NCBI GenBank assembly: GCA_904830895.1
Contig: LR882958.1
Location: 4,917,501 to 4,981,500 of the forward strand
Length of the DNA: 64,000 nucleotides
Direction: 5' to 3'
Source of the DNA: Planktothrix rubescens CCAP 1459/22
GTDB taxonomy: Bacteria > Cyanobacteriota > Cyanobacteriia > Cyanobacteriales > Microcoleaceae
A program made the position numbers and the translations under genes. The notes beneath the pieces were generated by a model. It did no database searches and was not told the origin of the DNA. It saw only the letters and a list, made by a program, of their open reading frames with translations. Shown in pieces: positions 31,168-34,949 of the stretch; the stretch's first letter is position 1, and every line of letters begins with the position of its first letter.

Positions 31168-31299
31168 TACATTTCGAGTGGTACAGTCCTTAATTATCTT
31201 AGCGTTACCATTGGCATCTGGGAGTTGTGAATCTGAAAAGGGACTGTTACTATATTATGAGATAGTAAAAATCCTAGTAATAAAATACAGCTTAAAAAA

Positions 31300-31920
31300 A
31301 TGGAAATCAACATTAATAGTACAATCCCATCAGTGAAATCTGAAAAACCTTTTCCAACAAGTCATGAACTCCAGCAGTTTATGGAATGGTTAAAATCAAA
31401 TGAAACTCCCTGGGAAGCAGCCAAGTATTTAGGGGAGTATGAAAAACTAATCATTGAAAATACAATTCGATCTTTGAAGCATAGCCATCCTGATCTATTT
31501 TTAACTTCACAGAGGGAGGAAAAAATAACTGGTGATATTAGTTTTTATCTACATTTAATTGGATACTCTTTAGTCGTAAGTAATAAAACAGCATTAGGTG
31601 AAGCTTTAAAACCCAATATCCTTGATACTTTATCTTTATCTTATAGCTGCTTAATTGAATCTCTCAATTTAATTAAGAATAATATTTTTCTTAAAGAAGA
31701 TGCAAAGCAAGAGATTTTAGAGTATATAAACTATGCCATACAAAAAATTAGTGAAAAGGACAGGGGCAAGAATTTAGAAGATGACAATTATCAGCTTCCT
31801 TTCTGGCAAAAAATCATAGAAATTGGTACAACTGTTTCTCAAGCAGAATGGGAAAAATTACCCAAAGATTTTTCTAAAAACTTTGAACATTATTTGTATG
31901 GGGTTGCTAAAGATTCATGA
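31300..31920 (+). CDS. Predicted antitoxin with a chromophore-less phycobiliprotein-like domain
   Basis: A 206-residue protein. Residues about 17-150 align by eye along the whole length of a phycocyanin/allophycocyanin subunit: FPTSHELQ matches the FLSxTELQ start, AAKYL the AAxAL helix, EEKITGDISFYLHLIGYSLV the KCARDIGYYLRxxTYCLV block, IESLNLIKNN the VEALKYIKAN helix, and EYINYAIQKIS the SYLDYAINALS end. The chromophore Cys of KCARD is replaced (KITGD), so no bilin can be attached there. The last 40 residues (FWQKIIEIGTTVSQAEWEKLPKDFSKNFEHYLYG) look like tails of cyanobacterial VapB-type antitoxins. It overlaps the PIN gene by 4 nt, as in toxin-antitoxin operons. Confidence 0.78.
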   Translation: MEININSTIPSVKSEKPFPTSHELQQFMEWLKSNETPWEAAKYLGEYEKLIIENTIRSLKHSHPDLFLTSQREEKITGDISFYLHLIGYSLVVSNKTALGEALKPNILDTLSLSYSCLIESLNLIKNNIFLKEDAKQEILEYINYAIQKISEKDRGKNLEDDNYQLPFWQKIIEIGTTVSQAEWEKLPKDFSKNFEHYLYGVAKDS

Positions 31921-32330
31921 AGTTTATTTTCTTGGATACTTCATATTTACAAGCTTTAGCTAACCCAGGTGATGATTTACATCAACGTGTCATAGAAGTA
32001 ACAGAAAAGCTGGGTGTGTTTGTTCCTGTTACCAGTGAAATGGTACTTACTGAACTTTTGAATGCCCTATCGAGCAAAGGTCGGTATTTGCGACAAATTG
32101 CACTTGAGATTACTACTAAATTACAAAATGATTCACAGGTTGAAATAGTTATTCAAACCAGCGAATTGTTTAAAAATGCTGTTGGATTTTATAGCCAAAG
32201 ATTGGATAAAGGTTACAGCTTAACAGACTGTGCCTCAATGTTAATTATGCGTCAAAAAGGAATTCAAGATATTTTGACTTATGATAAACATTTTTTGCAA
32301 GAAGGGTTTAATGCTTTGCTTAGAGAATAA
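31917..32330 (+). CDS. PIN-domain RNase toxin (VapC-like)
   Basis: A 137-residue single PIN domain. The metal-binding acidic residues are in place: Asp7 (IFLDTSYL), Glu46 (LTELLNAL), Asp104 (SLTDCASM) and Asp123 (TYDKHF). The family cleaves RNA at specific sites and is neutralised by a cognate antitoxin. It starts in the ATGA overlap with the phycobiliprotein-like gene, which strongly suggests translational coupling. It is followed after 41 bp by another antitoxin gene on the same strand. Confidence 0.9.
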   Translation: MKFIFLDTSYLQALANPGDDLHQRVIEVTEKLGVFVPVTSEMVLTELLNALSSKGRYLRQIALEITTKLQNDSQVEIVIQTSELFKNAVGFYSQRLDKGYSLTDCASMLIMRQKGIQDILTYDKHFLQEGFNALLRE

Positions 32331-32371
32331 GATAACCTTTAGAGGGTATTATAGAAAGAGGTTGACCCAAT

Positions 32372-32674
32372 ATGACAGAGATCAGGATTAATAGTGCAAT
32401 GGATGAAGAAAAAAAGAAACGTTTAGAAGCTAAAGGTTGGAAAGTTGGAACTGTTGCTGAATTTTTAGAACTAACGCCCGAAGAAGCAATGTTAGTTGAA
32501 ATTAAATTAGCCTTAAGTCGGAATAATCAAGAAATTTTAGTCGAAATTAGAGAGGTTAATGATTTTTGGTCAGCGTTACAAGATTTTAGACAAAAGGTAG
32601 ACTTAGAAAGTATTGATGATAATACTTTTGAGAATTTACGCGACAAATTACCTGGGAGAGAGGTTGATTTATGA
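32372..32674 (+). CDS. Antitoxin-like protein, partner of a truncated PIN toxin
   Basis: A 100-residue protein. Residues 10-45 (KKRLEAKGWKVGTVAEFLELTPEEAMLVEIKLAL) match the small helical DNA-binding-like module of HigA/XRE-type antitoxins common in cyanobacteria. The C-terminal half (VNDFWSALQDFRQKVDLESIDDNTFENLRDK) looks like the toxin-binding tail of VapB. It overlaps the next frame by 4 nt (ATGA). That frame starts as a PIN toxin but is cut short, so this antitoxin has lost its own toxin. Confidence 0.78.
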   Translation: MTEIRINSAMDEEKKKRLEAKGWKVGTVAEFLELTPEEAMLVEIKLALSRNNQEILVEIREVNDFWSALQDFRQKVDLESIDDNTFENLRDKLPGREVDL

Positions 32675-32802
32675 CTCTTAAGTATTTACTAGACACTAAT
32701 ATTTTATCAGAGCCTAAACGTCGTTCGACAGAGCGATCGCCTCTATCGGCGCGTAGCCCATCGCATCATTCAACAACAGGAGGAAAATTAATGAGAGACT
32801 AG
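32671..32802 (+). pseudogene. Truncated vapC (PIN toxin) remnant
   Basis: The 43-codon frame begins LKYLLDTNILSEPKR, the classic VapC N-terminus with the first catalytic Asp. After about 17 residues it runs into unrelated sequence containing a HIP1 site and a gcgtagcccatcgc repeat, and then stops. The rest of the PIN domain is missing. The gene overlaps the antitoxin by 4 nt, so the operon layout is preserved. No active toxin is expected. Confidence 0.85.
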
Positions 32803-32906
32803 ACAATTCATAAAGTGTCATACTGTACTAGATTCAGCTATAGTATTATGCTAAGTTAACAACAGTTAATTAAATGCAGAACAATCAAAAATAGGAGATC
32901 ATTGTG

Positions 32907-33305
32907 ATGTTACGGAAAATGACAATTCTATTATTGGCAGGTGTAATTGCGTTTTTAGGTATCGTGGCGAATATCAAGCCTGTCTATGCCTCTCCATTTG
33001 ATGATCTTGCTAATGCAGGATCATCAGTGATCACTACAATTGGTGAAACAGCTAAACAAGCCATTAACTCAGCTACAAGATGCTACTACAATAGTCCAGA
33101 TAATGCAATCGAAGAAAGTAGTTGTAATGCGGCTAAAGCGTTTGCAACAACAGGTATGCTTGTCGGGACTTGCTATCTCGTTGATGGAGCAGCCTCTTTT
33201 GCTTTTCCTCCTGCTATCGCATTAGAAACCGTCTGTGCCTCCTTGGGTATAGGTCAAGGTATAAAAGGAACCTTGAATAAAGGTTTACAAGTCATTCACT
33301 CTTGA
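32907..33305 (+). CDS. Small secreted protein with conserved cysteines
   Basis: A protein of about 132 residues with a good N-terminal signal peptide (hydrophobic residues 6-25, cleavage after VYA). The mature part has four cysteines and ends in a long hydrophobic, glycine-rich segment (CYLVDGAASFAFPPAIALETVCASLGIGQGIKG). I do not recognise the family. A bacteriocin-like or membrane-inserting peptide is possible but unproven. The ribosome binding site aggag at 32892 and the ATG at 32907 give a good start; a GTG codon lies directly before it. The gene sits just after the truncated toxin remnant. Confidence 0.7.
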   Translation: MLRKMTILLLAGVIAFLGIVANIKPVYASPFDDLANAGSSVITTIGETAKQAINSATRCYYNSPDNAIEESSCNAAKAFATTGMLVGTCYLVDGAASFAFPPAIALETVCASLGIGQGIKGTLNKGLQVIHS

Positions 33306-33404
33306 GTTTTATATCAACACTCATTAATCATTAAATTGATCGGCGATTTTGCCTTGTTCCCAGGTTCTACCTGGGAATATCGCTCTAAGTTATTATGATA
33401 ATAG

Positions 33405-33764
33405 TTAATAAGGAATCCAGTCTAATTTGTCTAACCACTCCTGAGCCTCAGTGATTTCCCAAATTAACACTAAAGATTCTGACCAAGTTCTAATTGTACC
33501 ACCTGGACGTAGCCAAACTAATCCCCAAATATGACCTCCTTCTCCCCAATGATCCTGCAAATGTCCTCCCATACTATTGCGGTTATCGGTTACTAATAAT
33601 CGTTGCGATACTTCCAAATAATTCAGCAATTCTGGATCAAGAGTTCCTAATGGGGGTGCTTCTGGTTCTCCCACTCGGATGATATCAATATCTGTATTGA
33701 AACGTTGTACCGCTAACTTCAATTTTGGCGGTAAATTTTCATCAAGGAGAAACCGAACTTTCAT
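33405..33764 (-). CDS. DUF5615 PIN-like toxin
   Basis: A 119-residue PIN-like protein. MKVRFLLDENLPPKL carries the characteristic DEN-x-P motif. RLLVTDNRNSMGGHL provides the second acidic patch. The length fits the DUF5615 family, presumed RNases of toxin-antitoxin systems. It overlaps the DUF433 gene by 23 nt. The middle insertion HWGEGGHIWGLVWLRPGG is a family variant seen with larger active-site loops. Confidence 0.85.
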   Translation of the reverse strand: MKVRFLLDENLPPKLKLAVQRFNTDIDIIRVGEPEAPPLGTLDPELLNYLEVSQRLLVTDNRNSMGGHLQDHWGEGGHIWGLVWLRPGGTIRTWSESLVLIWEITEAQEWLDKLDWIPY

Positions 33765-34089
33765 ATTTTAATTTCTCCTGTTCTCTCTGTTGCTTAATCG
33801 CTTGTAAACGTTGTCTTAACGGTGAAGGATGAGTTATAAACTCTTGATAATGCTGTTCTCGCTGTTTCCATAATCGCAATAAATAAGCATCCATCGCAGA
33901 ACGATTTTGTAAATAATAGGTTATCACAGCATAGATTTTTTCAAGGTTCAGGGTGGGTAATTCCTGTAAAATTTGTTCTGGGGTGTATCCATCCAGATAA
34001 TATTTGATCACATCCTCAATACCAATGCGATGACCTTTGAGGTGAATTTCATCAGGATTAATAAATTCTAAATAATCTTGTAACTGCAT
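33742..34089 (-). CDS. DUF433 antitoxin
   Basis: A 115-residue protein. The DUF433 core is clear: GHRIGIEDVIKYYLDGYTPEQILQELPTLNLEKIYAVITYYL (residues 19-60), a helix-turn-helix DNA-binding module. The C-terminal helical, charged tail probably wraps the DUF5615 toxin. It lies between the ribbon-helix-helix gene (2 nt upstream) and the DUF5615 toxin gene (23-nt overlap), so translation of all three is likely coupled. Confidence 0.9.
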   Translation of the reverse strand: MQLQDYLEFINPDEIHLKGHRIGIEDVIKYYLDGYTPEQILQELPTLNLEKIYAVITYYLQNRSAMDAYLLRLWKQREQHYQEFITHPSPLRQRLQAIKQQREQEKLKYESSVSP

Positions 34090-34091
34090 GG

Positions 34092-34331
34092 TTAAAACGA
34101 TACCTTATATTGTTCTTCAGCAAATTGCTCAAAATCTCTAAACCGTCCCTGTTCAAAATCTTCTAACCCTCGTTTAATGCCCTCAATCGCTGCTTCTATA
34201 TCATCCGTTTCCCATGTTAAGATTTGATTGAGAAGTTCAGTGACAACATAATTAATATCCTGTCCTTGCTTGGTGGCTTTTTCTCGTAGTTTTGCTTCGA
34301 GTTCGGGAGTCAGTGTTACAACAATTGACAT
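34092..34331 (-). CDS. Ribbon-helix-helix (CopG-like) antitoxin-like protein
   Basis: A 79-residue protein. MSIVVTLTPELEAKLREKATKQGQD fits the strand-helix-turn-helix of CopG/ParD-type antitoxins, and the acidic tail (DDIEAAIEGIKRGLEDFEQG) is the typical toxin-neutralising segment. It is the first gene of a three-gene operon, 2 nt before the DUF433 gene. Its own dedicated toxin is missing or it acts as a co-regulator. Confidence 0.82.
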   Translation of the reverse strand: MSIVVTLTPELEAKLREKATKQGQDINYVVTELLNQILTWETDDIEAAIEGIKRGLEDFEQGRFRDFEQFAEEQYKVSF

Positions 34332-34415
34332 AAATATTTTTTGAGTGTTGTTAACCTTTACAGGGTATTATAGCAAGAAATGAGAGCGATCGCTCTATCT
34401 TTAATAATAATACTT

Positions 34416-34844
34416 TTATTCTGGTAAAAATTCCAGGGATAAAATCTCGCTTAAGGTATAGGGACAAATTTCTGGAAATAAAGATAACCCGGTTTCTCTT
34501 TCCGCGCTCAGAGTTGCCAAAGGGTAAACATCTTCTATCGCTTCAGTCAAGTTAGGTTGAAGACTAGGATTTTTTTGCAGAAGTTTTGATAAACGGAGGC
34601 GTTGCTCTTTGATGGTTAATTGCCAACTGCGAGAGCGTAAATTAGGCTGAAATTGCCATTTTAAGAGGTGCATAATTAAGAGTTCTAATCTGCTGTCTAA
34701 TTGTCGTTTTTCCGAGCGTCCCATATCTTCTATTTCTTCAGCAATATTTTGCCAATCAATTTGATGGAGTTGTCCGGTTTTTAATAACTGTGATTGTTCC
34801 TGTGTCCAGGCATAAAAGTCTTGTTCATGGGTAGTTGAATTCAT
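34416..34844 (-). CDS. DUF29 family protein
   Basis: A 142-residue helical protein. The DUF29 pattern is visible: YAWTQEQSQLLKTGQLHQIDWQNIAEEIEDMG, the ELLIMHLLKWQFQP segment, the RSRSWQLTIKEQRLRL block and YPLATLSAERETGL. The family is abundant in cyanobacteria and has no established function; frequent occurrence near toxin-antitoxin loci has been noted. A second, more distant member is at 44700-45128. The gene is monocistronic here. Confidence 0.92.
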   Translation of the reverse strand: MNSTTHEQDFYAWTQEQSQLLKTGQLHQIDWQNIAEEIEDMGRSEKRQLDSRLELLIMHLLKWQFQPNLRSRSWQLTIKEQRLRLSKLLQKNPSLQPNLTEAIEDVYPLATLSAERETGLSLFPEICPYTLSEILSLEFLPE

Positions 34845-34949
34845 AGATTCTCCTGTAATTAAAGGCGATCGCTATTATTATAAATTAGGGTAAAAGTTGA
34901 GATTCAATCAAACTTAAACCCCAATTTAGAGTAATTTTCAACTCCTTGA

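What the first reader, a model, noticed from the sequence alone, without database searches (positions are those of the whole stretch)
31300..32330. Antitoxin built on a chromophore-less phycobiliprotein fold, coupled to a PIN toxin
Seen: 31300-31920 aligns by eye over about 135 residues with phycocyanin/allophycocyanin subunits (ELQ start, AAKYL, GDISFYLHLIGYSLV, ESLNLIKNN, INYAIQKIS). The chromophore Cys of KCARD is gone (KITGD). The last 40 residues look like a VapB-type tail, and the stop overlaps the PIN gene by 4 nt. Known: phycobiliproteins build light-harvesting antennae; VapBC-type pairs are toxin-antitoxins. Inference: a globin-like phycobiliprotein domain has been recruited as a sensor or dimerisation part of an antitoxin, which might tie toxin release to antenna turnover or bleaching. 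I know of no described system of this kind.
Basis: partly seen in the sequence, partly recalled or inferred. Interest (0 to 1): 0.87.

Follow-up and report, generated by a model that had tools for sequence, protein, structure and literature searches.

The report
Phycocyanin-derived antitoxin paired with RNase toxin
In some cyanobacteria a copy of the blue light-harvesting protein phycocyanin seems to have lost its pigment site and become the front half of an antitoxin for a neighbouring RNA-cutting toxin, which may let the toxin respond to breakdown of the light antenna.

Summary
Observation confirmed. Window 31300-31920 encodes 206 aa: residues 9-149 match Pfam Phycobilisome (6.3e-14), the model matches phycobiliproteins, and the chromophore Cys is gone. 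The last ~40 residues are a tail shared with other PIN-adjacent proteins; the gene overlaps a PIN gene by 4 nt.

Profile searches extend it: full-length fusions in 11 of 388 genomes of the order (5 Planktothrix, 6 in three other families), each with a PIN frame (9 intact, 2 damaged) at the same 4-nt overlap. The 13 intact phycobiliprotein domains form one clade (97/92) that groups with phycocyanin alpha, CpcA (99/99), so one capture of an antenna subunit fits best. In Planktothrix the domain is under purifying selection (pooled dN/dS 0.22). It is probably not needed for neutralisation: short relatives that are little more than the tail sit beside related PIN genes, and the tail also ends type I restriction specificity subunits.

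Best reading: a VapBC-like toxin-antitoxin pair whose antitoxin carries a CpcA-derived regulatory domain. A link to antenna breakdown through NblA and ClpC, host or phage, is plausible but untested. No toxicity, binding or tail-PIN contact was shown.

The parts
31193..32359 (+). whole module: the block that stays alike when its surroundings change (about 105 nt upstream, antitoxin, toxin, about 30 nt downstream)
   Evidence: blastn of five Planktothrix loci: L001 1394-2560 aligns to L033 1394-2560 at 91% while the flanks differ (window mapping)
31241..31274 (.). inverted repeat upstream of the antitoxin (13-nt arms, 85% complementary, 8-nt spacer; core TTACTAT-N8-ATAGTAA); possible operator, function unknown
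   Evidence: Exact core at the module in 4 of the 5 Planktothrix genomes with the fusion, at the remnant in G392 and at one unrelated place in G391 (10 genomes searched); G390 has one mismatch. Not found upstream of four other fusion loci, two of which have different inverted repeats
31300..31920 (+). antitoxin gene (206 aa): phycocyanin-alpha-derived domain plus neutralising-type tail
31324..31749 (+). residues 9-150: degenerate phycocyanin alpha (phycobiliprotein) domain without chromophore Cys
   Evidence: PF00502 6.3e-14; pooled dN/dS 0.225 over five orthologs; pocket residues
31750..31788 (+). residues 151-163: variable linker, low model confidence around 159-165
31789..31917 (+). residues 164-206: conserved tail PFWQKIIEIG..V...EWEKLPKDFSKNFEHYLYG
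   Evidence: shared with PIN-adjacent small proteins and with HsdS-type proteins
31917..32330 (+). PIN-domain toxin gene, VapC20-like (137 aa); acidic residues D7, E46, D104, D123
   Evidence: PF01850 2.1e-7; VapC20 4e-8; in 36 aligned PINs E46 and D104 are invariant, D7 is kept in 34 and D123 in 35

Best explanation
This is a type II-like toxin-antitoxin pair. The PIN protein (VapC20-like) is the toxin, presumably an RNase that stops translation. The C-terminal ~40 residues of the upstream protein are the part that neutralises it. The N-terminal two thirds is a phycocyanin alpha subunit (CpcA), captured once, that has lost the pigment-binding site. It now acts as a regulatory module that sets the stability or partner binding of the antitoxin. 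Shown here: the homology, the fused architecture, the constant PIN partner, a single clade that groups with CpcA, and purifying selection on the domain in Planktothrix. Inferred: neutralisation by the tail, toxicity of the PIN protein, and the regulatory role. My most likely route for regulation is delivery of the antitoxin to ClpC protease by the phycobilisome adaptor NblA, which would free the toxin when antennae are dismantled; I give that last step alone about 0.25.
For: PF00502 above its cut-off in 12 of 12 fusion proteins scanned, of 13 intact ones found, with phycocyanin alpha as the best NCBIfam model in the same 12, up to 9.1e-35. Full-length fusions in 11 of 388 order genomes, each with a PIN frame at a 4-nt overlap. 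All 13 intact fusion domains form one clade, 97/92, in a group with 22 CpcA rows, 99/99. Domain pooled dN/dS 0.225 over five Planktothrix orthologs; excess of silent changes in the three pairs tested of ten, P 6.1e-5, 1.5e-6 and 6.6e-7. Five short relatives (57-107 aa) that are little more than the tail overlap their PIN gene by 4 nt. PINs of six such loci lie with the nine fusion PINs on one side of a 100/98 branch. Toxin gene damaged in 2 of 11 loci (G157: in-frame loss of 42 aa including E46; G467: split frame) with an intact antitoxin; the reverse in 0 of 11. NblA in 10 of 10 genus genomes.
Against: No toxicity, neutralisation or binding was tested. The tail matches no named antitoxin family (three tail-only proteins) and no solved structure (best E 0.92), so its role rests on recurrence beside PIN genes. 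In 30 phylum loci a PIN homologue followed in 24, some of them partial, and in 6 none was found. The split PIN in G467 comes from a draft genome of about 570 contigs and could be a sequencing error. Fusion domains keep CpcA positions that look to me like fold core, and no preserved partner surface stands out (solvent exposure not measured). Tandem antitoxin copies before one PIN gene in G499, G467 and G509 are unexplained.
Confidence: 0.65

Rival explanations
1. The phycocyanin domain is only a stable platform (dimerisation, folding, anchoring of the tail), with no sensing. It joined the tail by chance recombination and is kept for structural reasons.
For: The tail rides on unrelated carriers: almost nothing, DUF2281-like (one hit above and one just below the cut-off), a RelN-antitoxin-like domain (below its cut-off), type I restriction specificity subunits, phycocyanin alpha. 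Positions conserved in the fusion domains look like fold core.
Against: Short, nearly tail-only relatives suggest that no platform is needed. The domain is under purifying selection over about 140 residues. One clade of CpcA-like domains found in four families suggests a use tied to phycobilisomes.
Confidence: 0.3
2. The domain is a decoy for phage- or host-made NblA: NblA binds the CpcA-like domain, brings ClpCP, the antitoxin is degraded and the PIN toxin stops translation. During infection this would be an abortive defence against phages that dismantle phycobilisomes.
For: The domain groups with CpcA. NblA is a ClpC adaptor that interacts with phycobilisome rods (PMC7966870, passages); truncated CpcA and CpcB forms map to regions described as NblA-binding (PMC6722726, passages). 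Phage PaV-LD of Planktothrix agardhii carries nblA, and phycobilisome degradation was reported in Synechocystis given that gene (PMC4103541, passages). NblA homologues in 18 of 50,697 phage records: 9 at E 4e-6 to 2e-5 (8 Microcystis phage records and one named only as cyanophage) and 9 Nodularia phage records at E 1e-3, with duplicate records of some phages.
Against: No binding evidence. [quoted passage not shown] binding to alpha subunits is recalled from a 2006 paper whose text I did not see. No NblA-contact surface could be shown to be preserved. PaV-LD was not among the 18 records; I did not look for it by name. PADLOC gave no significant defence match (best E 0.031). Host NblA would also trigger it in starvation.
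Confidence: 0.2
3. The domain senses phycocyanin assembly by pairing with free CpcB or a bilin lyase, so antitoxin stability reports antenna state.
For: Phycocyanin alpha fold, with Asp87 kept in the window; Cys84 kept in two relatives, L159 and L160.
Against: Asp13 is lost in 13 of 13 fusion domains, and the loop before Cys84 is short by about eight residues or more. That Asp13 matters for alpha-beta pairing is recalled, not from a call.
Confidence: 0.1
4. No toxin-antitoxin pair: a decaying antenna paralogue that happens to lie before a PIN gene.
For: Only 5 of 10 Planktothrix genomes have it, though one of the five without it is only 73% complete; the neighbourhood is a rearranging island.
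Against: Purifying selection, PIN frame in 11 of 11 and one clade across four families.
Confidence: 0.03

Closest known systems
C-phycocyanin alpha subunit (CpcA), PF00502 / TIGR01338
   Same: fold and ancestry: best curated model in 12 of 12 fusions scanned; fusion clade groups with CpcA
   Different: 40-120 bits against a cut-off of 269.45; pigment Cys84 lost in the window; loop before Cys84 shortened; extra tail; PIN partner
VapBC toxin-antitoxin systems; nearest solved toxin VapC20 (5wzf, 23S rRNA-specific endonuclease)
   Same: PIN toxin with the acidic residues, antitoxin gene upstream, 4-nt overlap
   Different: antitoxin has no known DNA-binding domain: Pfam finds only PF00502
Cyanobacterial PIN-COG2442 (DUF433) systems such as Synechocystis VapBC10 (PMC3834315, abstract and passages)
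   Same: two-gene PIN pair in cyanobacteria; antitoxin turnover by a Clp protease (ClpXP2, tested in E. coli) is reported there
   Different: VapB10 is a DNA-binding COG2442 protein, not a phycobiliprotein relative
Panacea and other partner-swapping antitoxin domains (PMC8832971, abstract and passages)
   Same: domain-level mixing in toxin-antitoxin evolution
   Different: there one antitoxin domain meets many toxins; here one tail, beside one PIN type, is carried by many N-terminal parts

Membership tests
Phycobiliprotein family (PF00502) | profile score above the gathering cut-off (22.2 bits) | tested here: met
   52.7 bits in the window; 12 of 12 fusions scanned, 41-97 bits; the 13th, L162 copy 1, was not scanned
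Phycobiliprotein family (PF00502) | phycobiliprotein fold | tested here: met
   model pLDDT 78.1; of the 50 Foldseek rows listed (155 matches at E 0.001 or less), 48 are titled as phycobiliproteins or phycobilisomes and two as fluorescent proteins. rmsd 5.7 A to phycocyanin alpha 4f0t_A, 2.5 A to 7uqa_C
C-phycocyanin alpha (TIGR01338 equivalog) | score above the equivalog cut-off (269.45 bits) | tested here: not met
   40.1 bits in the window, best relative 120 bits
C-phycocyanin alpha (antenna subunit) | chromophore-binding Cys84 with Arg86 and Asp87 (roles recalled) | tested here: not met
   I, G and D in the window; Cys84 kept only in L159 and L160, where Arg86 and Asp87 are lost (13 rows)
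VapBC type II toxin-antitoxin | PIN-domain toxin with conserved acidic residues | tested here: met
VapBC type II toxin-antitoxin | antitoxin gene next to and upstream of the toxin, conserved across relatives | tested here: met
   PIN frame in 11 of 11 fusion-bearing genomes, 4-nt overlap, damaged in 2
VapBC type II toxin-antitoxin | antitoxin with a DNA-binding domain (the definition in the abstract of PMC3834315) | tested here: not met
   only PF00502 in the Pfam scan; no significant DNA-binding family in NCBIfam
VapBC type II toxin-antitoxin | autoregulation at an operator | tested here: inconclusive
   inverted repeat upstream in Planktothrix; the same repeat was not found at four other fusion loci
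VapBC type II toxin-antitoxin | toxicity and neutralisation by direct binding | not testable with these tools
   needs bench work or a complex prediction

The most novel reading that the evidence does not exclude
A light-harvesting protein has been turned into an immune tripwire. A pigment-less phycocyanin alpha domain on an antitoxin acts as bait for NblA, the adaptor that cyanophages (and starving hosts) use to feed phycobilisomes to ClpCP. Attack on the antenna destroys the antitoxin and frees a VapC20-like RNase, so bleaching triggers dormancy or abortive infection.
Probability: 0.18. Interest if true: 0.93.

Novelty: new variant of a known kind. Interest (0 to 1): 0.77.

Why it matters
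It would be a case of an antenna subunit turned into part of a toxin-antitoxin pair, giving a concrete, testable molecule that could link antenna breakdown to growth arrest. It also shows a tail beside one PIN type riding on unrelated carriers (almost nothing, DUF2281-like, restriction specificity subunits, phycocyanin), which suggests that antitoxins can be tied to host processes by domain capture. If the NblA step holds, it would explain why a host would put bait in an antitoxin when its phages carry nblA.

Tried and rejected
Single-sequence searches suggested the fusion was confined to Planktothrix; the profile of five orthologs overturned that. Other collections gave no fusion: plasmids and phages with the window protein, no match; viral contigs, none of 11 pattern matches confirmed; plasmids with L159 and L161, 4 and 2 records matching the phycobiliprotein part only, none covering 80% of the query; viral contigs with the family alignment, 14 loci matching the tail part only. 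The extended profile in 386 phylum genomes showed no full-length member beyond three Planktothrix in its capped list; in the family of G521 it gave 2 of 20, both known. In the large searches at most 7-8 first-look candidates per genome were scored, so fusions may have been missed and 11 of 388 is a lower bound.

Trees: the first put the Planktothrix domains on a long branch between canonical proteins and orphan phycobilisome-like proteins (24 rows). For the second I dropped L063, L069 and one CpcA row and added the eight other fusion rows; it joined the Planktothrix domains to the remaining orphans, did not give the 13 fusions as one group, and flagged long branches (29 rows). For the third I dropped the two remaining orphans and added 19 CpcA rows (46 rows). 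The one-clade result depends on these choices. Four Planktothrix rows have unusual composition, some long branches are still flagged, and the order inside the CpcA-plus-fusion group is unresolved.

In the PIN tree the fusion PINs are not one clade: the label needs three changes, because PINs of nearly tail-only antitoxins nest among them (inner forks there are weak, 81-93). Tail against PDB: nothing significant. Remnants of a phycocyanin domain in 21 loci without a known fusion: none (the 22nd, L001, scored 2.5e-61, but its own sequence is in the model). Repeats shared between fusion promoters: none. A different alignment of 32 rows gave no better model (pLDDT 77.1 against 78.1). Promoter-like sites are not clearly enriched in the region (8 found, 5.6 expected, sd 2.3). 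The dN/dS tests on the tail alone are weak (P 0.16 and 0.037).

Full report
What is there. Window 31300-31920 is an open frame of 206 codons; 31917-32330 encodes a 137-aa PIN protein, and the two overlap by ATGA. The first protein scores 52.7 bits to Pfam Phycobilisome over residues 9-149 and finds phycocyanin alpha chains in the PDB (8e-8). An AlphaFold model (mean pLDDT 78.1) gives a mostly confident helical domain at about 20-155, a poorly defined linker at 159-165 and a helical tail of middling confidence. Of the 50 Foldseek rows listed, 48 are titled as phycobiliproteins or phycobilisomes and two as fluorescent proteins. The PIN protein hits PF01850 and VapC20.

Where it lives. The fusion is in 5 of 10 genomes of the genus, each time 206 aa and before the PIN gene. 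In all five it lies on the 5' side of a uvrA-like gene (named by eye), directly beside it in three and about 1.4 and 4.7 kb away in G157 and G390. A sixth genome, G392, keeps about 80 nt of the upstream block, and its island shows no phycocyanin domain. One of the genomes without the fusion, G389, is only 73% complete. The pattern fits a mobile or easily lost module.

Selection. Over residues 9-150 the five orthologs show pooled dN/dS 0.225; for the PIN gene (four intact copies) 0.16. Silent changes exceed the neutral share in the three pairs tested of ten (P 1.5e-6, 6.6e-7, 6.1e-5; these pairs share history). The tail has few changes and its two tests are weak (P 0.16 and 0.037). The phycobiliprotein part is therefore not a decaying leftover.

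Wider family. Each has the tail and a PIN frame overlapping by 4 nt. G499 and G467 have two fusion genes in tandem before one PIN gene; G509 has one intact and one broken copy. In G157 the PIN gene has lost 42 codons in frame, including E46. In G467 it is split, which in a draft genome could be a sequencing error. An intact fusion remains in both, and no locus shows the reverse. That asymmetry, 2 of 11 against 0 of 11, is what a toxin-antitoxin pair predicts, but the numbers are small.

Ancestry. The best NCBIfam model is phycocyanin alpha in 12 of 12 fusions scanned, from 40 to 120 bits; G521's domain is 36% identical to an annotated cpcA product. In a 46-row tree the 13 fusion domains form one clade (97/92) in a group with 22 CpcA rows, whose inner order is unresolved; that group is separated from CpeA, allophycocyanin-type and beta rows at 99/99 (row labels other than CpcA and CpeA are mine). 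Two earlier trees that held orphan proteins were less clear, and one of them did not show a single fusion group. One capture of CpcA is the simplest reading.

What the domain lost. Mapped to CpcA, 13 rows: Cys84 is Ile in Planktothrix, Leu in L158, Tyr in the f4 genus, and still Cys in L159 and L160, which instead lack Arg86 and Asp87. The loop before Cys84 is short by about eight residues in 11 of 13 rows and by more in L159 and L160. Asp13 is Lys, Gln or Thr in all 13. No row has Cys84, Arg86 and Asp87 together, though bilin binding in L159 and L160 cannot be excluded.

What the tail is. A search of 386 phylum genomes with the tail alone found it in 31. Among 30 fetched loci, three of them Planktothrix fusions, a PIN homologue follows in 24; in L129, L133 and L148 it is 65 residues or fewer, and in 6 loci none was found. 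One of those six, L124, has a different PIN-like gene further on (by eye). Carriers include almost nothing (57-107 aa proteins), DUF2281-like (33.4 and 26.3 bits against a cut-off of 26.5), a RelN-antitoxin-like domain (47.6 bits, cut-off 70), and type I restriction specificity subunits of about 550 aa (PF01420, three of three scanned). In a tree of 36 PIN proteins the nine fusion PINs and six PINs of nearly tail-only antitoxins lie on one side of a 100/98 branch, the six nested among the nine. So the tail seems able to serve beside this PIN type without the phycocyanin part, which then looks like an added function. This is an inference from genomes, not a neutralisation test.

How it may work. 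Antitoxins are commonly removed by Lon or Clp proteases; Synechocystis VapB10 is cut by ClpXP2, as tested in E. coli (PMC3834315, passages). NblA is a ClpC adaptor for phycobilisome proteins; [quoted passage not shown] Truncated CpcA and CpcB forms map to regions said to bind NblA (PMC6722726, passages). Planktothrix phage PaV-LD carries an nblA, and phycobilisome degradation was reported in Synechocystis given that gene (PMC4103541, passages). All 10 genus genomes have NblA, and 18 of 50,697 phage records have a homologue, 9 of them weak (E 1e-3). A CpcA-like antitoxin domain would be a natural NblA substrate. I could not test this. The positions the fusions keep look like fold core and mark no contact surface.

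Known or new. Four literature searches aimed at this combination found no report of such a system (open-licence PMC only, listings seen). The held text of the 2009 survey of type II systems has no 'phycob' or 'phycocyanin' (PMC2701414). PADLOC has no significant match. It looks like VapBC but fails that family's DNA-binding antitoxin feature, so I call it a new variant.

Noticed in passing
L163 4193-6279 (+), L164 4596-6664 (+), L165 5978-8073 (-): Proteins with a type I restriction specificity domain (PF01420) end in the same tail and are followed at once by the PIN gene: a restriction system apparently tied to a PIN toxin.
   Followed up: partly
window 32372-34850: Cluster of toxin-antitoxin-like genes beside the uvrA-like gene: a degraded antitoxin/PIN pair at 32372-32802, further small antitoxin- and toxin-like genes and a DUF29-like gene; names are by eye.
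   Followed up: partly
window 32333-32359 and 34352-34378: A 27-nt repeat (93% identical) just after the PIN gene and again 2 kb on; also once in G388's island. May be a recombination point.
   Followed up: no
L064 1474-1956, L066 1456-1962, L069 1480-1941, L070 904-1944: Orphan phycobilisome-like proteins in the same genome; the match in L070 is borderline (22 bits) and lies inside a 346-aa protein; L069 lies near V4R-like genes (by eye). L064, L066 and L069 are not close to the fusion.
   Followed up: partly
L008 2118-2405: G157's PIN gene has an in-frame loss of 42 codons, apparently between two short TSE-coding repeats, removing E46; the antitoxin is intact.
   Followed up: yes
L193-L206: Tail-part relatives in 14 IMG/VR viral contigs; their genes and neighbours were not examined.
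   Followed up: no
L161 696-2154, L162 705-2154, L171 5548-7007: Two tandem phycocyanin-tail genes before a single PIN gene in three genomes of one genus; one copy broken in L171.
   Followed up: partly
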